Positions 8,911 to 53,166 of a DNA stretch of 64,000 nucleotides are shown piece after piece (position 1 is the first letter of the stretch; each line of letters opens with the position of its first letter). The notes beneath the pieces were generated by a model. It ran no database searches. It saw only the letters and a program-made list of their open reading frames with translations, and had not been told where the DNA came from. The stretch is from Spirosoma sp. KCTC 42546 (GTDB taxonomy: Bacteria; Bacteroidota; Bacteroidia; Cytophagales; Spirosomataceae), in assembly GCF_006965485.1 (NCBI RefSeq), contig NZ_CP041360.1:7482501-7546500 (forward strand), given 5' to 3'. Position numbers and translations under genes: made by a program.

Positions 8911-10149
8911 ATGAACTTGTTGGCCTCACTTTCTCTGGCAACTGGCTTGATGGTGGCAAGTGTTTCTGATCTCGCCGGTTTGCTACACAAACCAGCAGAC
9001 AGATCATTGCCTATCCACACTGCTACTGCTTTAGTTACCGACCCCGGACTAACCAGGCTCTTGCCACCTGTCTATTTCTGTGGGGAATCGGTTCCCTTAC
9101 ACGAAGAAGCAGTTGCCCGACGATTAGTATCTGCCTTAGCCCAGAACACAAACCAAAATCGGATATTTTATCGTATTCGGCAGCGGGCGTCTGTATTTTT
9201 TCCTATTATCGAACCGATTCTGGCCCGGCACGGTATTCCGCTCGACTTCAAATATTTACCCTTGGTCGAGAGTGCGCTGACAGGTCTGGCAGTATCACCT
9301 AAGGGGGCGGTAGGCTATTGGCAGTTTATGCCAGCTACAGCGCGTGAGCTAGGGTTAAGCATCCGGCCTGGCTACGATGAACGGCAGAGCCTGGTCAAAT
9401 CAACCAATGCAGCCTGCCGCTATCTGAACTATCTGTATAATCGACTGGGCTCCTGGACACTGGCCGCTGCGGCTTACAACAATGGCATTGGTGCCTTACT
9501 GGGCAATATCCGCCGACAACAGCAACGCGACTATTATTACCTACGCCTGAACGCCGAAACAGGAAAGTATCTGTACCGAATTCTGGCATTCAAAGAATTA
9601 TTTTCTAACTATCGATCCTATCAGGGGTTTATTCCTGAGCGGATGATGGCTTACTTAAGTGAGCCACTCACGCCCGATGCTGAACCGGATAAAGATGAGG
9701 TGCTTTTGCCAGAAGTGATCATGAACGAGGCCACCAAAGTAGCGGTTAATGCACCTTCTACTGAAACAGCACAGCCAACCGCCGGGCGAACGCTTGATAT
9801 ACCCCTCCCCAATGCAGGTGATGTGTTTCGGGGAGGTATCAAAGCGCGACTGGTGGAATCAGCAGGTGTCGAACGAGGCCAGGTCTGGGTATTTCACCTC
9901 ACCCGCGATGGGATGGCCGACGGCAAAGAAGTGGAAGAAGGTGATGTTTTGTATGCCATTGTGGAAGACGTTGACAAAAAAACGGATAAGATCTACCTGC
10001 GCGCAGATCGGCTTTATTCGGCGAGTGAAAAACACACCTATACTATGAATCTATCGGCCATTGATGCCTCCACGGGCCGTATTGGCATTAAACTCCCCGA
10101 TGTGGATCAGATAAAGGCAGGCTGGATTCTGACCTGGAAAACATTGTGA
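8911..10149 (+). CDS. Lytic transglycosylase, SLT domain (paralogue 2 of 3)
   Basis: A 412-residue exported murein transglycosylase. N-terminal signal-like segment MNLLASLSLATGLMVASVS, then VYFCGESVPL shared with its two neighbours, then the SLT domain with FKYLPLVESALTG (catalytic Glu120), GAVGYWQFMPATARELGL and SWTLAAAAYNNGIG. After a variable Pro/Thr linker (about 225-290) comes a C-terminal domain of about 110 residues (RLVESAGVERGQVWVFHLTRD through GWILTWKTL) that is repeated in the third paralogue and absent from the first. It has no LysM repeats, unlike typical MltD. The stop codon opens directly onto a hairpin repeat at 10147-10280. The tandem arrangement implies local duplication. 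Confidence 0.92.
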   Translation: MNLLASLSLATGLMVASVSDLAGLLHKPADRSLPIHTATALVTDPGLTRLLPPVYFCGESVPLHEEAVARRLVSALAQNTNQNRIFYRIRQRASVFFPIIEPILARHGIPLDFKYLPLVESALTGLAVSPKGAVGYWQFMPATARELGLSIRPGYDERQSLVKSTNAACRYLNYLYNRLGSWTLAAAAYNNGIGALLGNIRRQQQRDYYYLRLNAETGKYLYRILAFKELFSNYRSYQGFIPERMMAYLSEPLTPDAEPDKDEVLLPEVIMNEATKVAVNAPSTETAQPTAGRTLDIPLPNAGDVFRGGIKARLVESAGVERGQVWVFHLTRDGMADGKEVEEGDVLYAIVEDVDKKTDKIYLRADRLYSASEKHTYTMNLSAIDASTGRIGIKLPDVDQIKAGWILTWKTL

Positions 10150-10280
10150 AGTTGTGAAATGAGTGAAGTGGTGGAGTGGGTGAAGTAAGTGAAATAGGTG
10201 TAGTAAGTAGATTGCTGGTTAATCTATTTCACTTACTCCACCACTTCACTCATTTCATTTACTCCACTCACTCCACTACT
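10147..10280. repeat. Inverted array of GTGAAGTRG-type words
   Basis: A run of 8-9-bp words (GTGAAATGA, GTGAAGTGG, GTGTAGTAA) begins at the TGA stop of transglycosylase 2 and is followed by its own inverse complement. Segments 10156-10177 and 10235-10256 are exact 22-bp inverse complements; the remaining words differ in number between arms. The same word family occurs at 19504-19524, 19805-19865 and 50631-50727. Confidence 0.9.
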
Positions 10281-10345
10281 TTGCCAACTGAACTAAACCC
10301 TGAATACGATTCGTTGTCTATGGGTCTAACCAACAACTCTTTATT

Positions 10346-11590: not shown

Positions 11591-11613
11591 TCTAACCGCG
11601 CGGGAGGTCCCGC

Positions 11614-17019: not shown

Positions 17020-17463
17020 GACTTCAAACGGATTAAATGATTAAACAAGGTCGCCCCTTGTCTCAAATCCTCAAGGAGCTTTCGCTAGTTAATATTAAGC
17101 AAATATTATGTCAATATTAACTAAACATTACCATTTACATCCATTATCCTAACTTACTGGGAGTCAGTATATTTTACAAAATAGCATAAAAACGGCTGTC
17201 ATATTTTGAATTTTATTGATTTTAAAGTATAATATATCTCTAACTATATTTCTATAGCCAGTTTGCAAAATATTATTTCCCACTTCAATGTTAATTTAAT
17301 GTTAAGAAAATTAGTAAGTGCTTGGATGCGACAGACTAAAAATGAAAACGTGTGATAAGCCTACAGGCTGCTTTTAGAAATACAGTCAAATCACAGAGGT
17401 AATAAAACAAGAAAAGTCCGGAAGCTGCTTCCGGACTTTTCTTGTTTTACTGTTGTGTAGTTA
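17020..17463. other. AT-rich intergenic region
   Basis: About 440 bases without a convincing gene. It is very AT-rich and contains a 10-bp inverted repeat (AGTTAATATT at 17087-17096 with its complement at 17113-17122), possibly an operator for the gene at 17019, and the hairpin at 17403-17449. Nothing else is recognised. Confidence 0.5.
17403..17449. terminator. 22-bp perfect hairpin, bidirectional
   Basis: Arms 17403-17424 and 17428-17449 pair perfectly around a three-base loop; the stem GTCCGGAAG is flanked by A-rich and T-rich outer arms. It lies 15 bases beyond the stop of the GNAT gene and would terminate it. Confidence 0.9.
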
Positions 17464-18715: not shown

Positions 18716-19507
18716 ATGCTCCGCAAATCACTCTATCGTATTCTTGAAACTTCGGCAGGTAAACGTCGGGGAGTCAGTCTGGCGTTTAATCTGGTACTGA
18801 TTACGATCATTACGCTGAACGCGATCGCTATTGTTCTCCATACGGTGCCGGACTATAACCAGCAATTTTCGCGCCTGTTTACTGACTTCGAACTGTTTTC
18901 GGTGGGTTTCTTTACCATTGAATACTTATTACGTGTTTGGGTTAGTGTGGAGAATGAAAAATACCACCACTGGTTCTGGGGGCGCCTTCGTTACATTGTC
19001 TCAACCAGCGCCATTATTGACATTCTGGCCATTTTCCCATTCTACTTCTCACTATTTGCTACCGATCTGGCTATTGTTCGAATTCTACGACTGTTCCGAA
19101 TTTTCCGACTCTTTCGTATTTCACGTTACTCACATGCCTTTCGCCTGATTCAGAATGTAGTTGCCGAAAAGAAAGAAGAACTGGTACTCAGTATTATGCT
19201 GGTAATTTTCATGCTCATTATCGTATCGAGTGTAATGTATTATGTTGAACATGCGGCCCAGCCTGATAAATTTTCCAGCATTCCGGCAACCATGTGGTGG
19301 GGAGTTACGGCCATGACAACCGTTGGCTATGGCGATATTCATCCCATTACCCCTTTAGGAAAACTGCTGGGCGGGATTACGGCCATAGTCGGTATTGGCG
19401 TGTTCGCCTTACCAACCGGTATTCTGGTATCCGGCTTCAACGAGCATATTCGTGATCACAAAATACCCCGTCGCAAAGTATGTCCGCATTGTGGGAAGGA
19501 AATTTAG
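18716..19507 (+). CDS. Voltage-gated-type potassium channel (Kv-like ion transporter)
   Basis: A 263-residue inner-membrane channel with six transmembrane segments. S4 carries regularly spaced arginines (about residues 122-137: VRILRLFRIFRLFRISR), the hallmark of a voltage sensor. The pore has the K+ selectivity filter TTVGYGD (202-207) between S5 and S6. The C-terminus ends RRKVCPHCGKEI, a half zinc-ribbon (one CxxC pair) that could assemble with neighbours in the tetramer; this tail is unusual for the family. The gene appears monocistronic and its stop codon runs into the GTGAAGT-type repeat at 19504. Confidence 0.93.
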   Translation: MLRKSLYRILETSAGKRRGVSLAFNLVLITIITLNAIAIVLHTVPDYNQQFSRLFTDFELFSVGFFTIEYLLRVWVSVENEKYHHWFWGRLRYIVSTSAIIDILAIFPFYFSLFATDLAIVRILRLFRIFRLFRISRYSHAFRLIQNVVAEKKEELVLSIMLVIFMLIIVSSVMYYVEHAAQPDKFSSIPATMWWGVTAMTTVGYGDIHPITPLGKLLGGITAIVGIGVFALPTGILVSGFNEHIRDHKIPRRKVCPHCGKEI

Positions 19508-19524
19508 TGGAGTGAGTGAAGTGC
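19504..19524. repeat. GTGGAGTGAGTGAAGTG word array, left flank of pseudogene
   Basis: Starts within the stop codon of the channel gene and is inverse-complementary to words in the array at 19805-19865. Together they bracket the four-helix-bundle pseudogene in inverted orientation. Confidence 0.75.
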
Positions 19525-19735
19525 AAAACTGAATATTTTCCTAAAAATGATACCGGCCATAACCTTCTGCTATATTGGCAGAAATACTTCGACTAGCTCT
19601 AATAAGTTGGTCTGCCAGCCGGTAACGTTCATCAGCAGGGAAAGATTTTACGAGTAAATCAATAGTCTGTCTGAATTTTCGGGCTTCCTGCCAGACAATC
19701 AATTCTTCAAAACCGCTGCTTTTTTCACGTTCCAT
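19523..19735 (-). pseudogene. Four-helix-bundle protein (S23/IVP-like) remnant
   Basis: From ATG 19735 the frame reads MEREKSSGFEELIVWQEARK, then LADQLIRASRSISANIAEGYGRYHF, the N-terminal half of the four-helix-bundle family first named for proteins encoded in 23S rRNA intervening sequences (Avd of diversity-generating retroelements has the same fold). Intact members are about 115-125 residues; this one stops after about 64 at a TAG (19541-19543). The same frame continues after the stop as ENIQFC, which is the expected family sequence after GRYHF, and then breaks off where the GTGGAGT repeat begins. So the gene has both a nonsense codon and a truncation at the repeat. Its function is unknown even in intact form. 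Confidence 0.8.
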
Positions 19736-19804
19736 GAAGCATAAGAGAAGTGTAAGGAAATAAAAAAATAAACTAAAAAGCAATAATAAGCACATAACTT
19801 ATTT

Positions 19805-19865
19805 TACCTACCGCACTCACTCCACCTACTTCACCAACTCCACTCACTCCACCCATTTCACGAAA
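19805..19865. repeat. CACTCACTCCACC word array, right flank of pseudogene
   Basis: A run of 8-9-bp words (TCCACTCACTCCACC, CTACTTCACCAA) that is the inverse complement of the array at 19504-19524 and of the left arms at 10150 and 50631. Confidence 0.8.
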
Positions 19866-19905: not shown

Positions 19906-21831
19906 ATGGAAAATTTCGTGGTCTCGGCCCGCAAGTACCGTCCCGCTACCTTCGACACTGTCGTGGGTCAGGAACACATTACTACCACACTTAAAAACGC
20001 AATCAAGACCAATCACTTAGCGTCTGCCTTCCTGTTTTGCGGACCACGCGGGGTTGGTAAAACAACCTGTGCCCGGATTCTGGCCAAGACAATCAATTGT
20101 CAAAACCTGACTGCCGATGGAGAAGCCTGCGACCAATGTGAGTCGTGTGTGAGCTTTAATCAGAGTGCATCGTTTAATATTCATGAGCTGGATGCGGCTT
20201 CGAACAACTCCGTTGAAGATATCCGCAACCTGATTGATCAGGTTCGTTATCCACCCCAATCGGGAAAATACAAGATCTATATTATTGACGAGGTGCACAT
20301 GCTCTCGTCGGCTGCGTTCAATGCGTTCCTGAAAACGCTGGAAGAACCCCCCTCCTATGCCATCTTTATTCTGGCCACAACGGAGAAGCATAAAATTCTA
20401 CCAACAATTTTATCGCGTTGCCAGATTTTCGACTTTAATCGGATTCAGCCGGGGCACATTGCCAATCACCTCGCCCAAATTGCTGAAAAGGAAGGTGTTA
20501 CTGCCGAAACGGAAGCCCTGGACCTGATTGCTCAGAAAGCTGACGGGGGGTTGCGTGATGCGTTGTCGATGTTCGATTTGAACGTGACCTTTGCGGCCGA
20601 CCGGATAATCCGGTATAAGGAAGTGCTGGATAACCTCCACATTCTGGACTATGATTATTATTTCAAACTGACGGATTTACTGTTGGCAGGTAATCTTCCC
20701 CAAAGCTTGCTGACAGTCGATGAGATTCTGCGTAAGGGTTTCGACGGACATCAGTTTATCGTTGGCTTGTGTCGTCACTTCCGGGATTTGCTGGTTTGTA
20801 AAGATGCGGCTACGGTTCAGTTGCTGCAAGTGACCGAAAACGTTCGGCGGCAATACCTCGACCAGGCGGCTCGGGCGCCCATGTCGTTTTTACTCTCAGC
20901 CCTTAGCCTTGGCGGTCAGTGCGACATGAACTACAAGCAGGCTAAAGACCAGCGGCTACACACCGAATTGTGGCTGATGAAACTGGCCAATTTGCGTAAC
21001 CTGCTCAACTGGGAAGCCCTCCCAGACCTGCCACTCAACGGTATACATAGTGGAGAAACGACGACAGTAAGCCAGGTGATGGCTGAAAAAAAAAACGCTG
21101 GACCGACAATCGGCAATCCCAAGCCCTCGCCTGATAGCAGCCAACTAATCGAAAGTCATCCTATCACAAGTGAGCCTGTGAATGGATACCATTCCACCGT
21201 ACCTGCTAACGGTAACGGCACAGTAATGAATGGATTGGCTAAACCCAACGAGCAAACAGCGGCAACAAATGCGCAGGTAACAGCCGTAGTCACACCACAA
21301 CCTGCTGTTGCCAAGTCGGATTTACCGCCCAGGCCACAACCAGTCCCACCAACAAGGCCCGCCGGAAGTCGATTACGGTCGACAGTTGCCTTAACAACGG
21401 GGCCGGTTCAACCCGAGGCTGCTACCGATGCAGCACCCATTGTTGTAGCATCGACTCGCCCTGATAAACCGTTTGATTTCGATGAGTTACAGGCCGCCTG
21501 GCAAGCCTTTGCAAAACTTCGGCGTGAGAAAAGCGATATTACCACCGAACAGGTTGTCTTGAATCGCGATCTGATTCTGGACGGCACAACGATTCATCTT
21601 AAGCTTGACAACACCCTGCAAGTCGATTTTCTAACCGAACTGAAGCCCGACCTGCTGGGCTACCTTCGCACTGAACTTCAGAATAGTCAGATTAAGCTTG
21701 AGCATCAGGTAGTTGTGCAGGAAGTGAAGAAAATGATTTACAGCTCGCAGGATAAATACAACTACCTGGCCGAGAAAAACCCCGCCCTGCATGAGTTACG
21801 AAAGGTGTTGAATCTGGAAGTAGATTATTGA
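19906..21831 (+). CDS. dnaX: DNA polymerase III subunit gamma/tau
   Basis: A 641-residue clamp-loader ATPase of the replisome. The AAA+ core shows Walker A GPRGVGKTT (Lys52), a zinc site of four Cys (65, 75, 78, 81), DEVHMLSSAAFNAFLKTLEEPP and the sensor region ATTEKHKILPTILSRCQ. Domain III ends near residue 370. A Thr/Pro/Ala-rich linker (about 400-520) leads to a tau-type C-terminal domain (FDELQAAWQAFAKLRREKSD onward) that should contact the polymerase alpha subunit. A run of ten A at 21086-21095 (codons 394-397) lies right after the clamp-loader core and may generate a short gamma form. The TGA stop is the first three bases of the perfect hairpin 21829-21902. Confidence 0.96.
   Translation: MENFVVSARKYRPATFDTVVGQEHITTTLKNAIKTNHLASAFLFCGPRGVGKTTCARILAKTINCQNLTADGEACDQCESCVSFNQSASFNIHELDAASNNSVEDIRNLIDQVRYPPQSGKYKIYIIDEVHMLSSAAFNAFLKTLEEPPSYAIFILATTEKHKILPTILSRCQIFDFNRIQPGHIANHLAQIAEKEGVTAETEALDLIAQKADGGLRDALSMFDLNVTFAADRIIRYKEVLDNLHILDYDYYFKLTDLLLAGNLPQSLLTVDEILRKGFDGHQFIVGLCRHFRDLLVCKDAATVQLLQVTENVRRQYLDQAARAPMSFLLSALSLGGQCDMNYKQAKDQRLHTELWLMKLANLRNLLNWEALPDLPLNGIHSGETTTVSQVMAEKKNAGPTIGNPKPSPDSSQLIESHPITSEPVNGYHSTVPANGNGTVMNGLAKPNEQTAATNAQVTAVVTPQPAVAKSDLPPRPQPVPPTRPAGSRLRSTVALTTGPVQPEAATDAAPIVVASTRPDKPFDFDELQAAWQAFAKLRREKSDITTEQVVLNRDLILDGTTIHLKLDNTLQVDFLTELKPDLLGYLRTELQNSQIKLEHQVVVQEVKKMIYSSQDKYNYLAEKNPALHELRKVLNLEVDY
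21086..21095 (+). promoter_or_regulatory. A10 slippery run in dnaX (candidate gamma-producing recoding site)
   Basis: The sequence GCT GAA AAA AAA AAC holds ten consecutive A. A -1 shift would append 13 codons and stop at TGA 21132-21134 (product about 409 residues); the other frame also stops at a TAA about 20 codons on. The position, just beyond domain III, is where E. coli and Thermus dnaX make gamma. Confidence 0.6.
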
Positions 21832-21902
21832 TATGTATGATGTATGATATAGGATGTATTTCGCGCCAGCCATACATCCTATATCATACATCATACATAT
21901 CA
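21829..21902. repeat. Perfect 30-bp hairpin of ATGTATG heptamers spanning two stop codons
   Basis: Arms 21829-21858 and 21873-21902 are exact inverse complements with a 14-base loop. Arms are built of heptamers (TGATGTA, TGATATA, GGATGTA). The first three bases are the TGA of dnaX and the last three are the complement of the TGA of the convergent TPR gene, so both genes end exactly at the hairpin edges. Probably acts as a bidirectional terminator. Confidence 0.92.
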
Positions 21903-23015
21903 TTTATACGCCTTTGCCTCCCGAATCAGCGACTTGTACTCCCCTACGGCCAGTGCCTTTTTGTAATACAGTTTGGCTTGATTCTGGTTATTAGCCCGGT
22001 CAGCTATACGCGCTAAACCTGCATAGGCAAACGCGCGATACTCCTTCGTATAGGCATCATTCGATGGAAATTTGAGTGCCATTTCATAGGACTCAGCAGC
22101 TTCTTTGTCATTTTTATCAGCCAACTCGGTCAGCATTCCGGTGAACGTATGGAAGGCCAATGGCACTAATTTATTAGGCATCTGCTTCAACCGCTGAACA
22201 TAAGGGCGTGCTTCGCTATACCGCCCCGACAGCAGTAGCGATTCAGCGTAGGTCATGGCAAATAACGGGTTGTTGGGGTATTTATCAACCAGATATTTCA
22301 TGTAGACCGTGGCTCGTGCTGGGTTCGTTTCGTGTTTCATCAGCAAATGTGCCAGGTAGTAATTGGATACCGGGCGCATAAACACCGCTTTACGAGTTGC
22401 CATATCCATCTGCTTGATTCCCAGTGCAATGTCGCCATCGGCAAAGAAAAACATGAAGGGTTTAACAATTGGATGGTCGGCCGGATAGCGCTCGACATAA
22501 TAGTTATAAAGCCCGGTTGTGAAGTAGAAATCTGGATTCTTGTCCGTCAACTTGATACCATCCCGCAGGTAATTGTATGCCTTTTTCGATTCACCAACAG
22601 CCTTTAACGACTCGCCCTGATTGTTATATAGTGCGGCCATATAGCTATGACAAGTGAGCATAAAAAACACAGCTTCCGGATCTTCTTCGTTTTTGGCAAG
22701 CATCCGTTTCGACAATTGTAATGCCTGCCCAACGGCTTGCTCAAACTGTACGGTGGCCACTTTATTTTCAGCGAGCGGCAAGTTTTGGATATCCAGTTGT
22801 GTAGCCCGTAAAATTGGGGCAACCGGATGCTGCGGATACTTGGCCTGAAGCTGTCGAATCAATACATCAGCATCAGCAAACTCAAGATTATAAATGTGAT
22901 CAAGCGCTTTTACAATGGTTTGCTGAGCGGCTGGGTCACTCATGACCTGCGCTGGAGCGAGCACCGGTAAACAGAGCAGAAATACGCTCAGTAAAGTATT
23001 TTTCAGAATGGACAA
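21900..23015 (-). CDS. Exported tetratricopeptide-repeat protein
   Basis: A 371-residue exported protein (signal MSILKNTLLSVFLLCLPVLAPAQ) made of helical TPR-like hairpins throughout, for example ALDHIYNLEFADADVLIRQLQAKYP, ATVYMKYLVDKYPNNPLFAMTY, ARPYVQRLKQMPNK and AKLYYKKALAVGEYKSL. It should be a periplasmic protein-interaction scaffold. Nothing points to a specific partner. The gene converges on dnaX, sharing the palindrome as a terminator. Confidence 0.85.
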   Translation of the reverse strand: MSILKNTLLSVFLLCLPVLAPAQVMSDPAAQQTIVKALDHIYNLEFADADVLIRQLQAKYPQHPVAPILRATQLDIQNLPLAENKVATVQFEQAVGQALQLSKRMLAKNEEDPEAVFFMLTCHSYMAALYNNQGESLKAVGESKKAYNYLRDGIKLTDKNPDFYFTTGLYNYYVERYPADHPIVKPFMFFFADGDIALGIKQMDMATRKAVFMRPVSNYYLAHLLMKHETNPARATVYMKYLVDKYPNNPLFAMTYAESLLLSGRYSEARPYVQRLKQMPNKLVPLAFHTFTGMLTELADKNDKEAAESYEMALKFPSNDAYTKEYRAFAYAGLARIADRANNQNQAKLYYKKALAVGEYKSLIREAKAYK

Positions 23016-23255: not shown

Positions 23256-24491
23256 ATGATTCATTACGAACAATTTGTTTTAGATAATGGCCTGCGGGTA
23301 TTCGTTCATGAAGACGAATCTACGCCGATAGCCGCCGTCAATATTTTATATAACGTTGGCTCACGCGACGAAGACCCCGCCAAAACGGGATTCGCACACC
23401 TGTTTGAGCACTTAATGTTCGGTGGGTCGCGAAATATTCCGAGTTACGATGAGCCGCTGCAGAAAGTGGGGGGCGAAAACAACGCCTTTACCAGCCCAGA
23501 TATTACGAATTACTACATCACCTTACCCTCAGCCAATCTGGAAACCGCTTTCTGGCTCGAATCGGATCGGATGCTGAGTCTTTCGTTCGATCCGCAGGTG
23601 CTGGACGTGCAGCAAAAAGTAGTGATTGAAGAGTTTAAGCAACGTTACCTAAACCAGCCTTACGGTGATGTCTGGCTTAAACTTCGTCCGTTGACCTACC
23701 AGCAACACCCCTACCGCTGGGCAACGATTGGGAAGGATATCAGCCACATTGAAGAGGCTACGATGGGCGATGTTAAATCATTTTTCTTCAAATATTACCT
23801 ACCCAACAACGCCATTCTGGTTGTAGCAGGCAATGTAACCGTTGAGCAGGTGAAGCAGTTGTGTGCCAAATGGTTTGCCCCTATTCCGGCTGGTGATCCT
23901 TATATTCGGCAGCTTCCTAAAGAACCAATTCAGACCGAAGCCCGTAAGCTGGAAACATCGGCGAAGGTGCCCCTCAATGGTTTGTATAAAGCCTACCATA
24001 TGCCGGGACGGTTCGATGCTGATTTTTATAACGCTGACCTACTGAGCGACATGCTTGGCCGAAGCAAATCATCGCGTTTGTATCAACAACTCTTACGCGA
24101 TAACCCAGTGTTCAGCAGTATCAACGCCTACATTACATCGTCCATCGACCCTGGTTTGCTGGTGGTTCAGGGCAACCTAAACAAAGGAGTTTCGCTTGAA
24201 GAAGCCGATGCCGCGGTGGAATCCGTTGTGCAGGAATTGATAGAAAAACCCGTACCGGAGGATGAGCTGGCTAAAGTGAAAAATCAGGCAGAAGCCACAC
24301 TCGCTTTCTCGGAAGTTGAACTACTAAACCGGGCGATGAACCTTGCCTTCGCGGCTAATGCGGGGAATCCAGACTTAGTTAATCAGGAGGCTGCTCAGAT
24401 TCAGGCCGTCACACCCGATGCGATTCAGGCGATGGCCAAACAAGTCCTGCGGAAAGATAATTGCTCGACCTTGTATTACCGAGTTGCATGA
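23256..24491 (+). CDS. M16 family zinc metallopeptidase
   Basis: A 411-residue protein of the pitrilysin/mitochondrial processing peptidase family. The inverted zinc motif HLFEH gives His48, Glu51 and His52, and the third ligand is expected in KVVIEEFKQR (Glu125 or Glu126). The second half contains the family's non-catalytic domain with a characteristic S-rich turn (MLGRSKSSRLYQQLLRDN). No signal peptide is visible, so it is probably cytoplasmic, as for one-domain-pair M16B proteins that act in dimers with a partner. The stop codon overlaps the start of ispF (ATGA), so the two are translationally coupled. I see no adjacent inactive M16 partner. Confidence 0.93.
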   Translation: MIHYEQFVLDNGLRVFVHEDESTPIAAVNILYNVGSRDEDPAKTGFAHLFEHLMFGGSRNIPSYDEPLQKVGGENNAFTSPDITNYYITLPSANLETAFWLESDRMLSLSFDPQVLDVQQKVVIEEFKQRYLNQPYGDVWLKLRPLTYQQHPYRWATIGKDISHIEEATMGDVKSFFFKYYLPNNAILVVAGNVTVEQVKQLCAKWFAPIPAGDPYIRQLPKEPIQTEARKLETSAKVPLNGLYKAYHMPGRFDADFYNADLLSDMLGRSKSSRLYQQLLRDNPVFSSINAYITSSIDPGLLVVQGNLNKGVSLEEADAAVESVVQELIEKPVPEDELAKVKNQAEATLAFSEVELLNRAMNLAFAANAGNPDLVNQEAAQIQAVTPDAIQAMAKQVLRKDNCSTLYYRVA

Positions 24492-24967: not shown

Positions 24968-24975
24968 TTGCTAGA

Positions 24976-25070: not shown

Positions 25071-25089
25071 GTTAAAATACAGCCTCTTT

Positions 25090-26223: not shown

Positions 26224-26227
26224 TATT

Positions 26228-26319
26228 TTAACCGCAAAGGGCGCAAAGGTTACGCGAAGATCGCAATGTAAAATTAACCTCGCGCTCTTTGTGTTAACCT
26301 TTGCACCCTTTGCGGTTAA
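26228..26319. repeat. Inverted array of CCGCAAAGG-type words
   Basis: Arms 26228-26252 and 26295-26319 are 25-bp inverse complements with one mismatch (core AACCGCAAAGG), with further partial pairing inside. The words recur at 9-bp spacing (ACCGCAAAG, GGCGCAAAG). It starts four bases after the amidohydrolase stop and ends five bases before the next start codon. Confidence 0.88.
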
Positions 26320-26324
26320 TATCA

Positions 26325-27425
26325 ATGAAAATAACCCAAATCAACCTCTACCGCTACGACATTCCGCTCAAAGCGCCCATTGCTATTTCGCTCGGTACTA
26401 TTGAAAACGCCCGGAATATATTGGTCGAGATTCAAACCGATGAAGGCATTACGGGCTGGGGAGAAGGGTCGCATTTGTGGATGATTGCTGGCGAAACTCA
26501 GGCATCGGGACTGGCGGCTGCGGATGATATGGCCAGGCTGCTAATTGGCCAAAGTCCGCTCAACATTGAAGGTTGTATCAACACCCTGACGCGCTATCTA
26601 CCGGCCCACCCCACCACCCGCTCAGCCTTCGATATGGCGCTCTATGATATTGCAGCCAAAGCTGCCCGAATGCCGTTGTACCAGTTTTTGGGTGGCGAAA
26701 AGCGTACCCTCGTAACCGACGAGACGATTTACATCAACACGCCTGAACGCATGGTGGAAGATGCGCTACGAATTCAGGCGAAGGGTGCCGAGGCCATCAA
26801 GGTGAAACTAGGTACGAATTTGCAGGATGACATCGCACGCGTAGAAGCCATTCGGAATGCGATTGGCGATAAAACACCCATCCGTACCGATGCGAATCAG
26901 GGCTGGGATGTTGTAACAGCGACGGGTGTTTTACGGGCCATTGGCGACTGGAATGTGCAGTATTGCGAGCAGCCTATTAAAAAACATAACATTGCTGGTC
27001 TGCGTCAAATTCGACAGAAAACAACCGTACCCATCATGGCCGACGAAAGCCTGTTCGATGCACCCGATGCCATACGGCTTGTGCGAGAGGAAGCTGTCGA
27101 TTATTTCAATATCAAACTCTCAAAGAGCGGAGGTATTTTTGAAGCGCTCAAAATCAACGCCATTGGCGAAGCCGCCGGAATTCCCTGCATGATTGGGTGC
27201 ATGTCGGAGTCCCGGTTGGCCTTAACCGCGAATGCCCATTTTGCATCGGCTCGTCAGAATGTGCGTTTCTATGATCTGGATGCCTGTTTCGAACATGCGG
27301 AAGACCCCGTTTTTGGCGGAATAACGTACAATGGCTACCAAATCGAACTGCCCGAAACACCAGGTATCGGTGCCGAAGTAGATTCGACTTTTTTAAAGAA
27401 ATGTGTAATGGTTAATGTACAATGA
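26325..27425 (+). CDS. Dipeptide epimerase (enolase superfamily)
   Basis: A 366-residue mandelate racemase/muconate lactonizing enzyme type protein, most like L-Ala-D/L-Glu and related dipeptide epimerases. ATG 26325 is chosen over an upstream TTG lying in the repeat arm. Catalytic features: KxK motif in AIKVKLG, metal ligands in IRTDANQGW (Asp), QYCEQPI (Glu) and PIMADESLF (Asp), and the second-side Lys in FNIKLSKSGGI. The substrate loop LWMIAGETQASG is in the usual place. It would interconvert dipeptide stereoisomers, often in murein peptide recycling. The final codons CVMVNVQ-stop lie inside the left arm of the repeat 27400-27487, so the C-terminus was made or altered by that element. Confidence 0.92.
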   Translation: MKITQINLYRYDIPLKAPIAISLGTIENARNILVEIQTDEGITGWGEGSHLWMIAGETQASGLAAADDMARLLIGQSPLNIEGCINTLTRYLPAHPTTRSAFDMALYDIAAKAARMPLYQFLGGEKRTLVTDETIYINTPERMVEDALRIQAKGAEAIKVKLGTNLQDDIARVEAIRNAIGDKTPIRTDANQGWDVVTATGVLRAIGDWNVQYCEQPIKKHNIAGLRQIRQKTTVPIMADESLFDAPDAIRLVREEAVDYFNIKLSKSGGIFEALKINAIGEAAGIPCMIGCMSESRLALTANAHFASARQNVRFYDLDACFEHAEDPVFGGITYNGYQIELPETPGIGAEVDSTFLKKCVMVNVQ

Positions 27426-27487
27426 ATAATGGATATCTAATACCGAGATGCTGCTCATTATGCATTGTACATTAACCATTACACATT
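27400..27487. repeat. 32-bp inverted array of TAATG heptamers, overlapping a gene end
   Basis: Arms 27400-27431 and 27456-27487 are inverse complements with one mismatch; heptamers include TAATGGT, TAATGTA and CAATGAA. The left arm encodes the last residues and stop of the epimerase; the right arm ends nine bases before the next ATG. Confidence 0.92.
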
Positions 27488-27495
27488 AACATCTC

Positions 27496-28053: not shown

Positions 28054-28061
28054 AATGTTTA

Positions 28062-28143
28062 TGGTTTACGGTTTGAGGTTTACGGTGGGCTGACGCAAAA
28101 TTACCAACGCGTCAGCCCACCGTAAACCTCAAACCGTAAACCA
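28062..28143. repeat. Perfect 35-bp hairpin of GGTTTAC heptamers
   Basis: Arms 28062-28096 and 28109-28143 are exact inverse complements with a 12-base loop. The outer part is heptamers (GGTTTAC, GGTTTGA, then GGTGGGC). It begins eight bases after the acetyltransferase stop and ends two bases before the next start. Confidence 0.95.
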
Positions 28144-28145
28144 CA

Positions 28146-29429
28146 ATGCGCCTGCTCCTACCCTTTTTACTTGTCACAACCTCACTTCTTGCCCAACCCT
28201 TTCCACAAACGTTTACCACAGCTAAATCGCCCGCAGAAGCGGGCTTTTCGGCCGACCGGTTGAAACGACTGGATACTTGGTTACAGGGACTTATTGATAA
28301 AGACATTGCCCCAAACGCGGTGACCTTCGTGGCACATCGAGGAAAAATTGTGCACTACAAAGCGTTTGGCTATAGCAATCTGGCGAAGAAAACACCTCTA
28401 AAACGTGATGATCTGTACCGGATTGCCTCCCAGTCAAAAGCCATCACGACCGTAACGTTGATGACCTTATACGAAGAAGAAAAGTTTTTGCTGGACGATC
28501 CTATTTCGAAATACATCCCGGCTTTCAAAAACCCGAAAGTACTGGTTAGCTATGATAAAAAAGACCCCATTGGTGGTAAGTACGAAACTCGTCCGGCAAA
28601 AAGTGAAATTACGATTCGGCAGTTATTGAGTCACAACGCCGGTATCCCCTATGAGCACCCCCTCGACCAACGACCCGAGTTCCGGGTACCCTTCTTTAAT
28701 TCGACTGCGCCCGACAAACTTGACGATGTCATTAATAAACTCGCCACACGCCCACTCTTGCGTGACCCCGGCACGGACTCCACCGGCGCGGGTTTTACCT
28801 ATGGTCTTAACATCGATATTCTTGGACGATTAATCGAGATCCTAGCCGGTAAACCCTTTGATGTAGCCATGCGTGAACGGGTACTGGAGCCGCTTGGTAT
28901 GAATGATACCTATTTCTATTTGCCCGATAATAAAGCCAGCCGTTTGGTGGAGTTATACAGCAAGCCGGGAATGGACCAACCCTTGACAGTACACACGAAC
29001 GAGGCCTACCGAAATTTTGCCGTGTCGGGAGCAAAAACATTTTTCTCAGGCGGTGCTGGTTTGGTCAGTTCAGTAGAAGATTACGCCAGGCTCTGCCAGA
29101 TGCTGCTCAACGGAGGCAGCTTCAACAACAAGCGGATTCTGGGTCGAAAAACCATAGAGATGATGCTTCGCAACCAAATCGGAGCTGCCGAAGTATGGGA
29201 TCGCAAAGATAAATTTGGGCTCGGCTTTATGCTGATAACCGAAAACTCCCGCTATGGTGATCAGGCTTCTCCCGGCTCCTACAACTGGGGAGGCATGTAT
29301 TGTTCCGAATTCACCATCGACCCAAAAGAAGAACTTATCTTGCTCATTTTCACGAATGTGCACCCTTATGCGTACTATGGCGATTTTGTGAAGAAATTTC
29401 GGATTGCCGTGTATCAGGCACTGGAGTAA
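28146..29429 (+). CDS. Serine hydrolase, beta-lactamase/class C family, exported
   Basis: A 427-residue exported protein (signal MRLLLPFLLVTTSLLAQ) with the penicillin-binding-protein-like hydrolase fold. The nucleophile motif SxxK is SQSK, Ser95 and Lys98, in LYRIASQSKAITTVTLMTL; LLSHNAGI follows as in the family. A Tyr-containing second motif is probably FTYGLNIDILGRLIEI. The third motif is not clear. The family covers esterases, D-aminopeptidases and PBP4*-like enzymes rather than true beta-lactamases. The 5' leader is essentially the right arm of the hairpin 28062-28143, which would bury the translation start region in RNA structure. Confidence 0.92.
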   Translation: MRLLLPFLLVTTSLLAQPFPQTFTTAKSPAEAGFSADRLKRLDTWLQGLIDKDIAPNAVTFVAHRGKIVHYKAFGYSNLAKKTPLKRDDLYRIASQSKAITTVTLMTLYEEEKFLLDDPISKYIPAFKNPKVLVSYDKKDPIGGKYETRPAKSEITIRQLLSHNAGIPYEHPLDQRPEFRVPFFNSTAPDKLDDVINKLATRPLLRDPGTDSTGAGFTYGLNIDILGRLIEILAGKPFDVAMRERVLEPLGMNDTYFYLPDNKASRLVELYSKPGMDQPLTVHTNEAYRNFAVSGAKTFFSGGAGLVSSVEDYARLCQMLLNGGSFNNKRILGRKTIEMMLRNQIGAAEVWDRKDKFGLGFMLITENSRYGDQASPGSYNWGGMYCSEFTIDPKEELILLIFTNVHPYAYYGDFVKKFRIAVYQALE

Positions 29430-36888: not shown

Positions 36889-38241
36889 ATGGAGCCACCT
36901 TCTTCGTCCTTATTTCCGGCTACCGACAAATCGGCCTGGCAGGCGCAGGTTCAGAAAGAATTAAAAACCGAGGGCGCTTACGAGACCCTTCGCTGGCATA
37001 CAGACGAGGGCTTCACGCTGGAACCCTACTATACTGCCGCTGATCTTTCCGACCTACCCTTAGCCACGATTCAGGAAGCTCAGAAGCAGGTTCCGGGCTG
37101 GCTTACTGCCCCAGAACGATTTATTGCCAATGAAAAAGCGGATAATATCCGGCTTCGGGATACGCTTACCCGTGGAGCCGATGCCCTGGTGCTTACGTTA
37201 GCCAAAGGACCCGATTTAATGCCTTTGTTGAATGGCATTAAACTTAGTGAAACGCCTGTTTTTTTTCGTCTCAGTGCCGAAACAGGAGGCATCAACTGGG
37301 TCGATTTGATTCGTTCGTTAAAAACCGTTGCGCCCTACCAGCTTAAAGGAGGTTTGCTCACAAACACGGATATAACCACGGCCGAAGTGACGCGACTAAC
37401 CGCCGACTCGCCCCAGTTCCGGACGGTCTGCGCCAGCAGCCATGACTTCCATAATGCCGGGGCCACAGCCACACAGGAACTGGCCTTTACACTGGCTTCA
37501 CTGGCCGATAGCTACGACCTGTTGACCAATGAAGGACTAACGATTGATCAACTCATTCCGAAAACGATCATTTCACTTTCTGTCGGAACGAGTTACTTTC
37601 TTGAAATTGCCAAGCTTCGTGCATTACGGGTGCTTTTTAGTCGCTTCATTACCCATTATCCATTATCCAGTAGTCATTATCCAGTAGTCATCCACGCCCA
37701 AACCTCTACTTTTTACGACACTACCGCCACGCCCTATACCAATTTGCTTCGGGCAACTACCGAATCGATGGCTGCCGTTATCGGTGGATGTGATGTACTA
37801 ACGATTCATCCGTATGATACCGTTTTAGGTCGATCAGCCGAAATGACAGATCAGGAAAAGGCAAACCGTGATTTCTCCGAACGGATTGCCCGGAACGTTT
37901 CACTGCTGTTGAAAGATGAGAGTTATTTAGACCGAGTAGCCGACCCATCGGCAGGGTCGTATTACATTGAGAATTTGACACAGCAGCTAACAGAAACTGC
38001 CTGGACCTTATTTCTGGATGTTGAACAGCAAGGCGGGTTTGCGAAGGCGTTAGCGAGTGGGTTCATTTCAACTGAGCTTGAGCAAGCCTATCAGGCGAAA
38101 GTAGAGGCAGTACGAAACGGAAAGGTGCTGGTAGGCGTAACGAAGTTCCGCTCCGATGAACCCGGAGATCAACCGTATAAGGGGTCTGAACATAAGGAAG
38201 GTTTATTGCCCAATCAACGACTGGCGCAGGCGTTTGAGTAA
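36889..38241 (+). CDS. mutA: Methylmalonyl-CoA mutase, small subunit
   Basis: A 450-residue homologue of the mutase TIM-barrel domain, the non-catalytic beta subunit that pairs with MutB in converting methylmalonyl-CoA to succinyl-CoA. Recognisable segments include [65 protein letters not shown] and [21 protein letters not shown]. The B12-binding domain is absent, as expected for this subunit. mutB follows after 11 bases, so the two form one operon. Residues about 254-267 ([17 protein letters not shown]) are encoded by an in-frame run of heptamers (37647-37695) replacing the variable loop before IHAQTS. Confidence 0.93.
37647..37695. repeat. In-frame heptamer array inside mutA
   Basis: Six uninterrupted heptamers (CATTACC, CATTATC, CATTATC, CAGTAGT, then CATTATC and CAGTAGT again) plus a degenerate seventh. 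The complement of CATTATC is GATAATG, the exact word of the intergenic element at 24989-25009. Confidence 0.92.
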
Positions 38242-45650: not shown

Positions 45651-45714
45651 AACACAGAGGCACCGAGAACACAGAGTATTATTTATCACTCTATATTCTC
45701 GGTGCCTCTGTGTT
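45651..45714. repeat. Inverted array of CACAGAG-type words
   Basis: Arms 45651-45669 and 45696-45714 are 19-bp perfect inverse complements (core ACACAGAGGCACCGAG); words recur at 9-bp spacing. It lies between convergent nuclease and desaturase genes, 22 bases after the nuclease stop. Confidence 0.88.
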
Positions 45715-50608: not shown

Positions 50609-50630
50609 TTTTTTGTCAGCAGTGAAGTAA

Positions 50631-50727
50631 GTGGAGTTAGTAAAGTAGTGGAGTTAGTGGAATAAGTAAAGTTAATAACATAGCTTACTAACTCATTTCA
50701 CGAACTCCACTACTTCACCAACTCCCC
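50631..50727. repeat. Inverted array of GTGGAGTTAGT-type words before gldF
   Basis: Arms 50631-50667 and 50691-50727 match as inverse complements at 31 of 37 positions. The right arm ends at the TAG stop of the DUF4199 gene. Same word family as at 10147-10280 and 19504/19805. Confidence 0.85.
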
Positions 50728-51248
50728 TATTCAAACGGATTGGTTTTGTTTTTGCGTATGAAAGCGGCTATAACCAGTGAGAAAATAACACCTATCAGAA
50801 TGGTCATGAAGATACCAACGGCAAATGTTATCCCTGGGCTTTGAAATTTTTGCATCATGTCAACTGCCTGATCAACCTGCTCATCAGACATGTTTCCTTG
50901 CTCTTCCATCTGTTCACGAACCTGCTCGGTTAAGCGTTCCTGAAAGCCAGGATCAATAATGTTCGTATAAAAGATCGTGAACAAGGACGATAGGAACCCG
51001 GCAATGGCAGATAACAGGGTGCCCAGGCTCATACCATCTCCAAAACTCATATACCCTTCATTGGCAGATCGGTATTCGCGCATGCCCAGGATCAGACCAA
51101 CAATCAGAATACCATAAATAACGAGACTAAGCCCACGGTTAGTTGCCTGATCGAGTGTATACAGAATGGTTGAGTAGAGAACCAAGGTAATGCCAGTTAT
51201 AAGCCCCCATTTTAGGGCAACACGGGCGGTAGAAGTCTGGTTATTCAT
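50727..51248 (-). CDS. DUF4199 membrane protein (1)
   Basis: A 173-residue inner-membrane protein with four hydrophobic segments (WGLITGITLVLYSTILYTL, LVIYGILIVGLILGMREY, LGTLLSAIAGFLSSLFTIFYT, ITFAVGIFMTILIGVIFSLVIAAFI) and a charged loop with the acidic helix EQVREQMEEQGNMSDEQVDQAVDMM, the layout of the DUF4199 family common in Bacteroidota. Function unknown. Lies 27 bases from the second copy and appears cotranscribed with the dihydroorotase-like gene. Confidence 0.88.
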   Translation of the reverse strand: MNNQTSTARVALKWGLITGITLVLYSTILYTLDQATNRGLSLVIYGILIVGLILGMREYRSANEGYMSFGDGMSLGTLLSAIAGFLSSLFTIFYTNIIDPGFQERLTEQVREQMEEQGNMSDEQVDQAVDMMQKFQSPGITFAVGIFMTILIGVIFSLVIAAFIRKNKTNPFE

Positions 51249-51274
51249 GATCGTGAGGAAATGAGTATAGTGCG

Positions 51275-51826
51275 TTACTGTAAAACGCTGTAGTCCTGTT
51301 TTCGGAAAATAAGCGAAATAATAAGCACAGGCAGCACGGCTAAGGCTGTTTTTTTCGTCAGTTCGTCGGGAAGCAGGACTGACGGCGTCATTTTGATCGT
51401 TTTATCCCATTGCTCGGCAAAGGTTTCAGGACCAAACTGGTCTGTAAGCTGTTTCTTACCATCCAGTAATAGCTTCTTCGAGTTAACGATATATTCCGCA
51501 AATACACCCGGATCAATTTGAGTCACAAACAGATAAATGAGCCAGCCCGTTACTAAAGCCGCAACCGTATTCAGAACATAACCAATGGTCAGGCCTTCCC
51601 ACAAATGCAGTCGACCATGACCAATATATTTTCGATAATACCAGACTGTGGCCACCATAACAATGATATGAATGCCGTAATCCAGTACCCGAATATTACC
51701 CAGAGCGGGGATACCAATGGCATACAAAGCCAGAAAATACAGAAAGCACAAAACACCCGTCAGCAATCCGGCCAGGAGCGGAATTTTCAACAACGGATGC
51801 CCAAAATAATTCAGAATACTTTTCAT
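51275..51826 (-). CDS. DUF4199 membrane protein (2)
   Basis: A 183-residue membrane protein of similar layout to its neighbour, with a central helix pair and the loop YIVNSKKLLLDGKKQLTDQFGPETFAEQWDKTIKM. The ATG overlaps the stop of the dihydroorotase-like gene by four bases, indicating translational coupling. Function unknown; sequence drift from copy 1 suggests an old duplication. Confidence 0.8.
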   Translation of the reverse strand: MKSILNYFGHPLLKIPLLAGLLTGVLCFLYFLALYAIGIPALGNIRVLDYGIHIIVMVATVWYYRKYIGHGRLHLWEGLTIGYVLNTVAALVTGWLIYLFVTQIDPGVFAEYIVNSKKLLLDGKKQLTDQFGPETFAEQWDKTIKMTPSVLLPDELTKKTALAVLPVLIISLIFRKQDYSVLQ

Positions 51827-53166
51827 GTGGTTGGCTTAAATTGGCCATGATGTACGGTTCCGACTACGCGGCCCGTGAATGATTGCCCCAGAAACGGGGA
51901 GTTCTTGGATTTTGACAACGTACGCTCATAGCGCCAGGTAGCAGTTGGGTCAAAAAGCGTCAGACTGGCCGACTGTCCTTCGGCAATAGTCACGTCCGGT
52001 AGTCGCAGAATGGCTCGGGGGTTACTCGTGAGTTTCTCTATGAGTTGCAACAGCGGTAAGCCCTGATTGTGCGTTACAAGGGCAGCAAAGACCGTTTCCA
52101 GCCCAATGATACCAAATTCAGCTTGGTCGAATTCCAGATTTTTACTCTCGGCATCCTGGGGTGAATGATCAGATACAATTGCGTCAATCGTCCCATCAGC
52201 TAAGCCTGCCCAAAGGGCAGCCACATCCGTTGATGATCGAAAGGGTGGGTTTACTTTTAAATTCGTATCGAAACCCGATAAGGCCGAGTCATCAAACACT
52301 AACTGGTGAACCGCCACATCGCAACTTACAGGCATCCCCTGTGCTTTCGCCTGCCGGATCAGTTCAACCGACCGGGCAGTAGATAGGGTGGAGAAGTGTA
52401 ATACTGGGTGCAGGGGGCTCGGAGCACGGGGCCCAGCGCCCAGCGAATTTGAAGCTGTTGTTTCACTCTGCTCCATGCTCCGGGCTCCGAGCACGTAGTC
52501 CAGCAATCGTAAATCGCGCTCAACAAGTAGCTCTTCCGCTAAAGCGGGCATTCCCTTGAGGCCAAGCAATGTACTTTGAATCCCTTCATGCATTTGGCCA
52601 AATCGAGTCAGTAGCTGCTCTTCGGGCCGATTCATGAGCAAGCCGTTAATCGGTTGCAGATATTGGAGTGTTTTGAGCAGCAGATCAGGATTCTGGAGTG
52701 GGTGTGTCCCATCAGAAAACGCAACGGCTCCGGCATGATGCAGGTCCAGCATTTCCGTAAAGTCATCGCCAGCCGCTTTTTTTGTTACAGCCGCAATCAC
52801 ATGAACGTTCACAGGTTGCCCTTCGGCCATTCGTCGGACGTACCCCAGCGTTCCCTTATCGTCTATTACCGGCTGCGTGTTGGGCAACACGGCAATATCG
52901 GTAAAACCACCGGCGGCTGCCGCCCTACATACGCTGGTCAGGTCTTCTTTATGCTCGTAGCCAGGGTCTTGTGCCAATACACGCATATCGACCCAACCCG
53001 GTGACACATGCAGATTGTCCGACTCAATGATCCTGTAGTCAGAACCAACAGACAAGTTTTGGCCAAGCTGACGAATCAGGCCGTTTTCAACCAGAATATC
53101 AACCACCTGCCCATCCAGGGGCGATGCAGTATCAACAACACGGGCAGAACGGATTAGAAATTGCAT
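51823..53166 (-). CDS. Dihydroorotase-like protein lacking the metal-binding HxH
   Basis: A 447-residue amidohydrolase-superfamily protein of the dihydroorotase group. Where active enzymes have DxHxH followed by R-x-PG, this one reads GWVDMRVLAQDPGYEHKED: Asp60 is kept but both His are Arg62 and Leu64. The C-terminal DGTIDAIVSDHSPQ is conserved. I recall this DMR-type variant as a widespread second dihydroorotase-like protein in Bacteroidota, alongside a true PyrC; it may be inactive, structural for aspartate transcarbamoylase, or use another site. Residues about 224-256 (GARSMEQSETTASNSLGAGPRA and onward) are an insertion encoded by heptamer repeats. First gene of an operon with two DUF4199 genes, then gldF. 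Confidence 0.88.
   Translation of the reverse strand: MQFLIRSARVVDTASPLDGQVVDILVENGLIRQLGQNLSVGSDYRIIESDNLHVSPGWVDMRVLAQDPGYEHKEDLTSVCRAAAAGGFTDIAVLPNTQPVIDDKGTLGYVRRMAEGQPVNVHVIAAVTKKAAGDDFTEMLDLHHAGAVAFSDGTHPLQNPDLLLKTLQYLQPINGLLMNRPEEQLLTRFGQMHEGIQSTLLGLKGMPALAEELLVERDLRLLDYVLGARSMEQSETTASNSLGAGPRAPSPLHPVLHFSTLSTARSVELIRQAKAQGMPVSCDVAVHQLVFDDSALSGFDTNLKVNPPFRSSTDVAALWAGLADGTIDAIVSDHSPQDAESKNLEFDQAEFGIIGLETVFAALVTHNQGLPLLQLIEKLTSNPRAILRLPDVTIAEGQSASLTLFDPTATWRYERTLSKSKNSPFLGQSFTGRVVGTVHHGQFKPTT
52410..52492. repeat. Inverted GC-rich heptamer arrays inside the dihydroorotase-like gene
   Basis: Left run 52410-52444 has five heptamers (GCAGGGG, GCTCGGA, GCACGGG, then GCCCAGC twice). Right run 52465-52492 has four whose complements are GCTCGGA, GCCCGGA, GCATGGA, GCAGAGT. 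Together they form an imperfect hairpin, all in frame in the coding sequence. Confidence 0.85.

What the first reader, a model, noticed from the sequence alone, without database searches (positions are those of the whole stretch)
10147..52492. A family of heptamer/nonamer-word palindromes with changing words but constant architecture
At least eight intergenic sites (10147-10280, 19504/19805, 21829-21902, 24976-25070, 26228-26319, 27400-27487, 28062-28143, 45651-45714, 50631-50727) carry inverted repeats whose arms are strings of short degenerate words. The period is 7 bp at 21829, 24976, 27400 and 28062, and 8-9 bp at the others. Words differ (GATAATG, GGTTTAC, ATGTATG, GTGAAGTRG, CGCAAAGRN, CACAGAGNN), yet each site is built the same way: word array, short spacer, complementary array. 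Arms may be perfect (30 and 35 bp) or have unequal word numbers. This suggests a generating process, such as templated synthesis with strand switching, rather than copies of one mobile element. Heptanucleotide STRR arrays are known from cyanobacteria; folded palindromic versions in Bacteroidota are new to me.
Basis: partly seen in the sequence, partly recalled or inferred. Interest (0 to 1): 0.85.

Follow-up and report, generated by a model that had tools for sequence, protein, structure and literature searches.

The report
Word-array hairpins linked to S23 genes
Small DNA hairpins built from repeated 7-9-letter words are scattered between the genes of this bacterium, and the same kind of word arrays brackets a little-understood gene (S23) in many bacterial groups, which points to a widespread, largely unrecognised kind of small selfish DNA element.

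Summary
The nine sites are real. In 1.2 Mb sampled evenly across the genome, 102 hairpins have arms of 7-9-nt words; Markov sequence gave 1 in 1.26 Mb. That is the key: by eye, all six S23 genes of this genome lie between inverted word arrays of different words, and in 167 of 198 S23 loci from the genus, the phylum and beyond, inverted similarity exceeds the 95% level of far flanks. Word and period travel with the S23 protein between unrelated sites; the arms drift together between species. Of 108 S23-less hairpins, 75 use words found at S23 genes of the genus. S23-less arms mirror each other word by word; S23-bearing arms mainly share the word. Mismatches show no RNA-wobble bias. Best reading: S23 elements and S23-less derivatives, arms kept alike by fold-back copying on DNA, words probably read by S23. 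What moves them is unknown: no PF00078 reverse transcriptase here, and Y1 transposases sit beside other palindromes.

The parts
10147..10280 (.). S23-less word palindrome, 9-nt words of the GTGAAGTRG family; left array overlaps the stop codon of an SLT-domain gene (8911-10149)
19505..19523 (+). left word array (GTGGAGTGAGTGAAGT) of an S23-bearing element
19541..19795 (-). decayed S23 gene: ORF of 84 aa matching PF05635 23S_rRNA_IVP positions 1-54 of 106 (E 1.2e-17); the genome search counts one TAG inside the frame
19805..19861 (-). right, inverted word array of the same S23-bearing element (CACTCACTCCACC...)
21824..21907 (.). S23-less word palindrome, 7-nt words ATGTATG; same word as at the S23 gene of L003 elsewhere in this genome
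24976..25070 (.). S23-less word palindrome, 7-nt words GATAATG; present here and in G032, while 16 of 23 orthologous gaps read (own included) are at most 36 nt
26225..26322 (.). word palindrome, 9-nt words CGCAAAGGN (by eye); 21 of 26 orthologous gaps (own included) hold a hairpin, with words of several kinds (CGCAAAG, CACAGAG, CACGGAG) or, in four, a plain palindrome
27400..27487 (.). S23-less word palindrome, 7-nt words AATGNAN; the array supplies the stop codon of the enolase-like gene
28059..28146 (.). S23-less word palindrome, 7-nt words GGTTTACG with inner core GGTGGGCTGACGC shared by other copies in the genome
45651..45714 (.). word palindrome, 9-nt words CACAGAGNN (by eye)
50621..50733 (.). 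S23-less word palindrome, 9-nt words GTGGAGTTA
52417..52492 (.). weak palindrome of GAGC-type words (71% complementary) inside an amidohydrolase ORF; membership unsure

Best explanation
These are elements of one architecture: an inverted pair of arrays of about four degenerate words, 7, 8 or 9 nt long. In the full form a small gene for an S23 protein (PF05635/TIGR02436, four-helix bundle, Avd-like) lies between the arms. The S23-less hairpins in the window are miniature derivatives that use the same words. Shown: association, co-inheritance of word and period with the protein, concerted drift of the arms, mirror-copied arms in the S23-less form. Inferred: S23, a five-subunit assembly in a solved relative, binds the word array as iteron-like sites, perhaps one word per subunit, so that the protein fixes the period; S23 helps S23-less hairpins spread or persist in trans; arms are kept alike by fold-back copying on DNA during replication or repair; array length changes by slippage. 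Not known: the enzyme that moves them.
For: S23 genes lie between inverted word arrays: 6 of 6 in own genome (by eye); arm score above the 95% level of far flanks in 85/95 genus, 21/29 phylum, 61/74 wider loci. Best period among loci with strong period: genus 7 in 39, 8 in 28, 9 in 9 of 79; wider set 7 in 50 of 55. Period on the S23 tree needs 12 changes, shuffled mean 38.4. Non-orthologous pairs with S23 identity 0.65 or more: words match in 62% of 66, same period in 48 of 48 labelled (0.56 expected); below 0.45 identity words match in 1%. Concerted arms at orthologous S23 loci, identity 0.5-0.7, disjoint pairs: within 15.4, cross 10.5, 17 of 20, p 1.4e-4. S23-less hairpins: 75/108 match S23 flanks of the genus; far flanks 9/108, non-word hairpins 5/108. 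A 9-nt word pattern is found mostly in genomes whose S23 carries that word (MWU 1e-5). Solved relatives 2gsc and 2rld have five chains each.
Against: No movement was seen: in about 190 kb collinear between two genomes 93-94% alike, all four word hairpins detected are shared. S23 matches no nuclease, recombinase or polymerase model. The GATAATG pattern is abundant in several genomes without an S23 of that word (468, 244, 207, 150 matches); counts follow the total number of S23 genes only weakly (rho 0.33, 0.50, 0.26 for three words) and follow Y1 number and genome size better for two of them. The GTGAAGTRG family's S23 copies found (two, plus an adjacent fragment in G008) are broken. 29 of 108 hairpins match no S23 flank. 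In six S23-rich genomes outside the genus only 2 word hairpins in 120 kb. Loci are phylogenetically related, so p-values are optimistic. The protein-reads-words step is untested.
Confidence: 0.72

Rival explanations
1. They are REP/REPIN elements moved by Y1 (RAYT) transposases, with words as an incidental feature.
For: Same overall form (paired inverted arms, intergenic, many copies). Counts of two word patterns rise with the number of PF01797 matches per genome (rho 0.65 and 0.57; the third pattern 0.26, not significant). Own genome has 5 PF01797 matches.
Against: The 8 Y1 loci read (5 own, 3 relatives that look like orthologues of one own locus; 500 nt each side, by eye) are flanked by ordinary palindromes, not word arrays. 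The 9-nt GGGA pattern has 7 matches in G023, which has no PF01797 match. Genome size explains the GATAATG count at least as well (rho 0.72). Leaves the S23 link unexplained.
Confidence: 0.12
2. No protein is involved: slippage makes word arrays anywhere, and fold-back strand switching turns them into palindromes.
For: Mirror order of words in S23-less arms; arm identity exceeds word identity in 108 of 108; one orthologous hairpin changed its inner words in both arms between two genomes 93-94% alike (by eye), though another changed in one arm only.
Against: Words recur in families across the genome and match S23 flanks; word and period follow the S23 protein; arms some 400-500 bp apart around S23 genes also agree. 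Five genomes without PF05635 matches show none in 340 kb, but S23-rich genomes outside the genus show only 2 in 120 kb.
Confidence: 0.1
3. The hairpins are kept as RNA structures (terminators, processing or stability hairpins), and the arms covary by compensatory change.
For: 40 of 41 in the first census are not inside ORFs; 68 of 108 lie between co-directional genes. In the CGCAAAG gap 21 of 26 genomes have a hairpin of some kind, and among the rest some look like ordinary terminators.
Against: GU and AC mismatches are equal on the RNA strand (65 and 62), while terminator-like hairpins show 13 to 5 (p 0.048, 15 hairpins, a subset chosen after the wider control had given 68 to 58). Only 4 of 68 carry a T-run. 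Does not explain words.
Confidence: 0.08
4. They are made by a reverse transcriptase with S23 acting as Avd does in diversity-generating retroelements.
For: S23 is homologous to Avd.
Against: No PF00078 match in 17 of 36 genus genomes, the own genome among them; counts do not follow RT number. Avd model matched in two of six proteins, below its cut-off (35 and 44 against 80 bits).
Confidence: 0.04

Closest known systems
23S rRNA intervening sequences (IVS) with S23 ORF, e.g. of Coxiella (PMC4990558, passages seen)
   Same: Same protein family; terminal inverted repeat; the Coxiella IVS even has tandem heptamers next to the S23 ORF, varying in number between strains.
   Different: Here the elements seen sit between protein-coding genes; words differ per element; many S23-less copies.
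REPIN/RAYT (PMC3116915, passages seen)
   Same: A protein gene flanked by palindromic arms plus many gene-less inverted doublets with matching sequence type.
   Different: Partner protein is a four-helix bundle without a transposase domain; arms are arrays of 7-9-nt words; the genus has separate Y1 genes with other palindromes.
Heptanucleotide arrays: TAACTGA repeats (PMC4679880, abstract, outline and passages seen) and cyanobacterial STRR (recalled; search listing only)
   Same: Tandem 7-nt intergenic words; the TAACTGA abstract reports them also in five Bacteroidetes.
   Different: Those are described as direct arrays (one inverted case), and the term S23 does not occur in that paper's text; here arrays are paired and inverted.
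Diversity-generating retroelement Avd (PMC10053308, passages seen)
   Same: Homologous four-helix protein.
   Different: No RT in the own genome; template and variable repeats were not looked for.
MITEs (general knowledge)
   Same: Small, inverted ends, no gene, intergenic.
   Different: No transposase-encoding partner found; ends are word arrays that change in concert.

Membership tests
23S rRNA IVS | S23-family ORF inside | tested here: met
   PF05635 between the arms at 19541-19795, broken copy; six in the genome. The S23-less hairpins lack it.
23S rRNA IVS | complementary termini forming a stem | tested here: met
23S rRNA IVS | located in a 23S rRNA gene | tested here: not met
   no Rfam match in the window; no rRNA in 20 S23 loci checked of 80 fetched
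23S rRNA IVS | excised from RNA by RNase III | not testable with these tools
   needs RNA ends
REPIN/RAYT | cognate palindromes beside a Y1 transposase gene | tested here: not met
   8 of 8 Y1 loci read (about five independent) have other, non-word palindromes, by eye
REPIN/RAYT | two inverted units with a small spacer, many copies | tested here: met
   form only: loop median 22 nt, 85 per Mb
MITE | terminal inverted repeats, no gene | tested here: met
MITE | target-site duplication | tested here: inconclusive
   one gap (24968-25089) can be read by eye as a TTAGTT duplication against relatives with a 20-nt gap; the rest were not resolved
MITE | transposase-encoding partner with the same ends | tested here: not met
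   the partner with the same ends encodes S23, which matches four-helix-bundle/Avd-type models only
Diversity-generating retroelement | reverse transcriptase | tested here: not met
   0 PF00078 in own genome
Cyanobacterial STRR | tandem heptanucleotide words | tested here: met
   period 7 in 60 of 108 word hairpins, the rest 8 or 9; the family definition is recalled
Cyanobacterial STRR | occurs in cyanobacteria | not tested
   no cyanobacterial S23 locus was examined

The most novel reading that the evidence does not exclude
A class of mobile element found across bacteria, without transposase or reverse transcriptase, in which a pentameric four-helix ring (S23) recognises an inverted array of short words, one word per subunit; the protein fixes the word length (7, 8 or 9), word and protein co-drift, and the ring helps word hairpins copy themselves by fold-back synthesis and insert into operon gaps. 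The rRNA IVS and Avd of diversity-generating retroelements would be two specialised descendants.
Probability: 0.3. Interest if true: 0.93.

Novelty: new variant of a known kind. Interest (0 to 1): 0.84.

Why it matters
PF05635/TIGR02436 proteins are in 116 of 148 genomes searched of the window's phylum and in records from many other phyla, yet NCBIfam names them only 'four helix bundle protein'. This gives them a partner (word arrays), a prediction (the protein reads the words and sets the period) and a direct test. It also ties together items so far described apart: rRNA intervening sequences, heptamer arrays, MITE-like intergenic hairpins and Avd. If S23 really spreads or maintains hairpins without a transposase, the mechanism would be new. 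A general link between S23 and inverted word arrays was not seen in ten full-text searches of the held library (listings only, five papers looked into); papers outside that library were not searched.

Tried and rejected
Rejected or weakened: (1) reverse transcriptase as engine. (2) Y1/RAYT as owner of the words, though its count correlates for two of three words. (3) RNA-pairing selection. The first positive control for that test looked strong in 464 kb (non-word hairpins GU 22, AC 8) but vanished in 1.26 Mb at a slightly lower score threshold (68 to 58); only the small terminator-like subset (13 to 5, 15 hairpins) kept it, so the test rests mainly on the absence of bias in word hairpins. (4) Known RNA families: no Rfam match in the window. 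(5) S23 in viral contigs: no relative of the one query used. (6) A first null for arm similarity was spoilt by shared words and replaced.

Results against the reading: S23-bearing arms keep word order only slightly better than shuffled (0.870 against 0.852, 50 of 77), so mirror copying is shown for S23-less hairpins only. At S23 identity 0.8-0.9 concerted drift is not visible (28 of 57, p 0.09), and disjoint pairs at 0.7-0.9 give 19 of 31, p 0.06. Among hairpins with at least 50% lag identity, lag 4 is best in 23, more than lag 8 (15); I counted only lags 7-9 as words. The far-flank control for own-genome S23 loci was itself high (25 of 108 against 52). Density comparison of genomes without and with S23 was underpowered (0 in 340 kb, 2 in 120 kb). 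One of the word hits in each of G009 and G021 is, by eye, an ordinary hairpin. Word-type assignment was by strict regex: it missed L002 in the own genome and put L054/L055 (GAATGATG words) with the GATAATG group; a few GGGA-pattern matches are the S23 loci themselves (2 of 7 in G023, 2 of 9 in G008, 1 of 5 in G016). Some 'non-orthologous' pairs are neighbours in tandem S23 loci. In one search within-element similarity was favoured by how arms were chosen; one search is the fair version. In one search four of the 21 hairpins in the CGCAAAG gap are plain palindromes by eye and pairs are not independent. One search ended in a script error after printing; replace it. The print was cut in the middle, so some wider loci were judged only.

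Rows dropped: 13 of 108 PF05635 matches were not fetched (95 used); broken, short or X-holding S23 proteins left out of the tree (188 of 205 kept, 146 with a period label); loci with N or too short flanks (29 of 30 and 74 of 80 kept). One locus is in two sets (L174 = L202), so 198 loci are 197 distinct ones at most.
Full report
What is there. All nine listed sites exist. The window is 7,482,501-7,546,500 of a single 8.66-Mb contig. Arms are strings of degenerate words of period 7 (21829, 24976, 27400, 28062) or 9 (10147, 19504/19805, 26228, 45651, 50631). Several fill the gap between a stop and a start codon. In the four consecutive gaps of a five-gene co-directional run (24461-29429) there are four such hairpins of three word families.

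Is it more than chance. In 60 evenly spread 20-kb stretches plus the window (1.264 Mb) I found 323 hairpins, of which 108 have word periodicity at lag 7-9; one first-order Markov copy of the same DNA gave 12 and 1. Best lags among hairpins with at least 50% lag identity are 7 (60), 9 (33), 4 (23) and 8 (15), others 6 or fewer. Of the 108, 102 are in the unbiased 1.2 Mb: 85 per Mb, so roughly 700 in the genome (extrapolation). Two lie inside ORFs; 68 lie between co-directional genes, 19 between convergent and 10 between divergent ones, and 9 at stretch ends. Pattern counts agree: AATGNANAATGNANAATG has 710 matches in the genome and none when read backwards.

The key. Between the two lone arms at 19504 and 19805 is a broken PF05635 gene. 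The genome has six PF05635 genes, and by eye all six stand between inverted word arrays with six different words: GTTTGWA, GGAGGAAAG, ATGTATG, AATGACCNN, GATAATG, GTGAAGTRG. Three of these are words of S23-less hairpins in the window (21829; 24976 and 27400; 10147 and 50631), and a fourth, GTTTGWA, resembles the words at 28062.

How general. PF05635 matches were found in 35 of 36 genus genomes and 116 of 148 genomes of the phylum; a scan of GTDB contigs gave 80 loci from many phyla, Bacteroidota included. I compared the 250 nt on both sides of each S23 match with far flanks of the same loci. Inverted similarity exceeded the control 95% level in 85 of 95 genus loci, 21 of 29 phylum loci (30 fetched) and 61 of 74 wider loci (80 fetched); periodicity exceeded it in 79, 23 and 55. 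In the wider set the best period is 7 in 50 of those 55. An independent control, 70 small ORFs of the own genome, agrees (74 of 95 genus loci above its 95% level; Mann-Whitney p 5.5e-21). S23 is co-directional with both neighbours in 77 of 95 genus loci, 23 of 30 phylum loci and 43 of 80 wider loci; flanks were unreadable in 1, 3 and 16. In those co-directional loci it starts 46-62 nt after the upstream stop (medians of the three sets), with the next start 44-63 nt downstream. nuoC|nuoD and sucC|sucD gaps recur in distant groups; these gene names come from my reading of the flanking sequence, not from a search.

Word and protein. Period maps on the S23 tree with 12 changes against 38.4 for shuffled labels (orthologous copies contribute). 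The stronger test uses pairs at non-orthologous loci: with S23 identity 0.65 or more, arms match across loci in 62% of 66 pairs and periods agree in 48 of 48 labelled pairs (0.56 expected); at identity under 0.45, 1% match. So gene and both arms appear to have moved as a unit. At orthologous loci the words drift with divergence, but the two arms of one element stay alike. For disjoint pairs at S23 identity 0.5-0.7, within-element 15.4 and cross-ortholog 10.5, unrelated 7.9 (17 of 20, p 1.4e-4). Identity 0.8-0.9 shows no effect (28 of 57).

The S23-less hairpins. Their words match S23 flanks of the genus in 75 of 108 (far flanks 9 of 108; 108 sampled non-word hairpins 5). Orthologous gaps show both presence/absence and word turnover. 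YgbB|amidohydrolase: hairpin of GATAATG words in G000 and G032, gap of at most 36 nt in 16 of 23 genomes read, other content in the rest. Amidohydrolase|enolase: a hairpin in 21 of 26, of different words (four plain), within-element score 19.9 against 8.0 between orthologues (204 of 210 pairs). Two relatives 93-94% alike over about 190 kb share all four word hairpins detected; in one hairpin the inner words have been replaced in both arms, in another only one arm changed. S23-less arms copy each other in word order (0.906 against 0.814 with order shuffled); S23-bearing arms hardly do (0.870 against 0.852). Mismatch types show no RNA-strand wobble bias (GU 65, AC 62). I conclude that S23-less arms are kept alike by copying on DNA through the short loop (median 22 nt), while S23-bearing arms, some 400-500 bp apart, share a word because something reads it.

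Dependence on S23. Across 36 genomes, the GGGANGANAGGGANGANAGGG pattern is found mostly where an S23 carries that word (5 or more matches in 6 of 7 such genomes, against 1 of 29, which is the own genome, whose L002 also carries it). The GATAATG pattern is higher with such an S23 (p 0.006) but also high in several genomes without; the GTGAAGTRG pattern outlives its broken S23 copies. Relatedness was not corrected. Y1 transposase number and genome size correlate with two of three patterns, total S23 number only weakly. But Y1 genes here sit beside plain palindromes (8 of 8 read, about five independent), and there is no RVT_1 in the own genome.

Mechanism. Solved relatives 2gsc and 2rld have five chains each, and the title of the Xcc0516 structure paper, seen in a reference list, speaks of five four-helix bundles. 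Arms hold about four words. I therefore propose a ring that reads one word per subunit, which would explain why the protein fixes the period. This step is inference (about 0.3). Inverted arrays would then act as element ends. The catalytic step is unknown.

Relation to known things. The Coxiella rRNA IVS has S23, a terminal inverted repeat and heptamers of varying number (PMC4990558, passages), so rRNA IVS look like special cases, but location in rRNA is not met here. REPIN/RAYT is the closest analogue in behaviour, not in parts (PMC3116915, passages). I saw no paper that links S23 in general to inverted word arrays in ten searches of the held library.

Noticed in passing
window 37646-37691: A single-armed GATAATG-family array lies in frame inside a methylmalonyl-CoA mutase homologue (ORF 36889-38241), adding word-coded residues within the domain.
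   Followed up: partly
L064 (G021) against L319/L317 (G009): At the same efflux-operon gap G021 has an S23 element while G009, 92-95% alike in the flanks, has about 620 nt that read like an inverted two-gene toxin-antitoxin-type module: alternative occupants of one gap. The module was judged by eye only.
   Followed up: partly
L355-L362: Y1 (RAYT-like) transposase genes in the genus are flanked by several distinct ordinary palindromes (for example GTCGCTATGCGAC, AGCCCTGAAAGGGC), apparently a separate REP system in the same genomes.
   Followed up: partly
L069-L095 (genus loci): A divergent S23 subgroup (about 34-57 bits to PF05635) has mostly period-8 words and in several genomes occurs as two S23 matches about 1.7 kb apart.
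   Followed up: partly
window 28059-28146 and copies such as L099:8816-8891, L281:9032-9100, L292:7805-7889: The GTTTACGG family carries a non-word inner core (GGTRGGCTGRCGC) shared between copies, so this family at least seems to spread as whole units.
   Followed up: partly
L188, L192, L228 and L197, L225, L252: S23 elements sit in what read like sucC|sucD gaps of several Acidobacteria and nuoC|nuoD gaps of several Alphaproteobacteria; nuoC|nuoD is also used in the window's phylum (L151, L156, L173). Gene names by eye.
   Followed up: no
window 17403-17449, 4324-4371, 8774-8814: Perfect short-loop non-word hairpins, perhaps terminators or REP-type palindromes.
   Followed up: no
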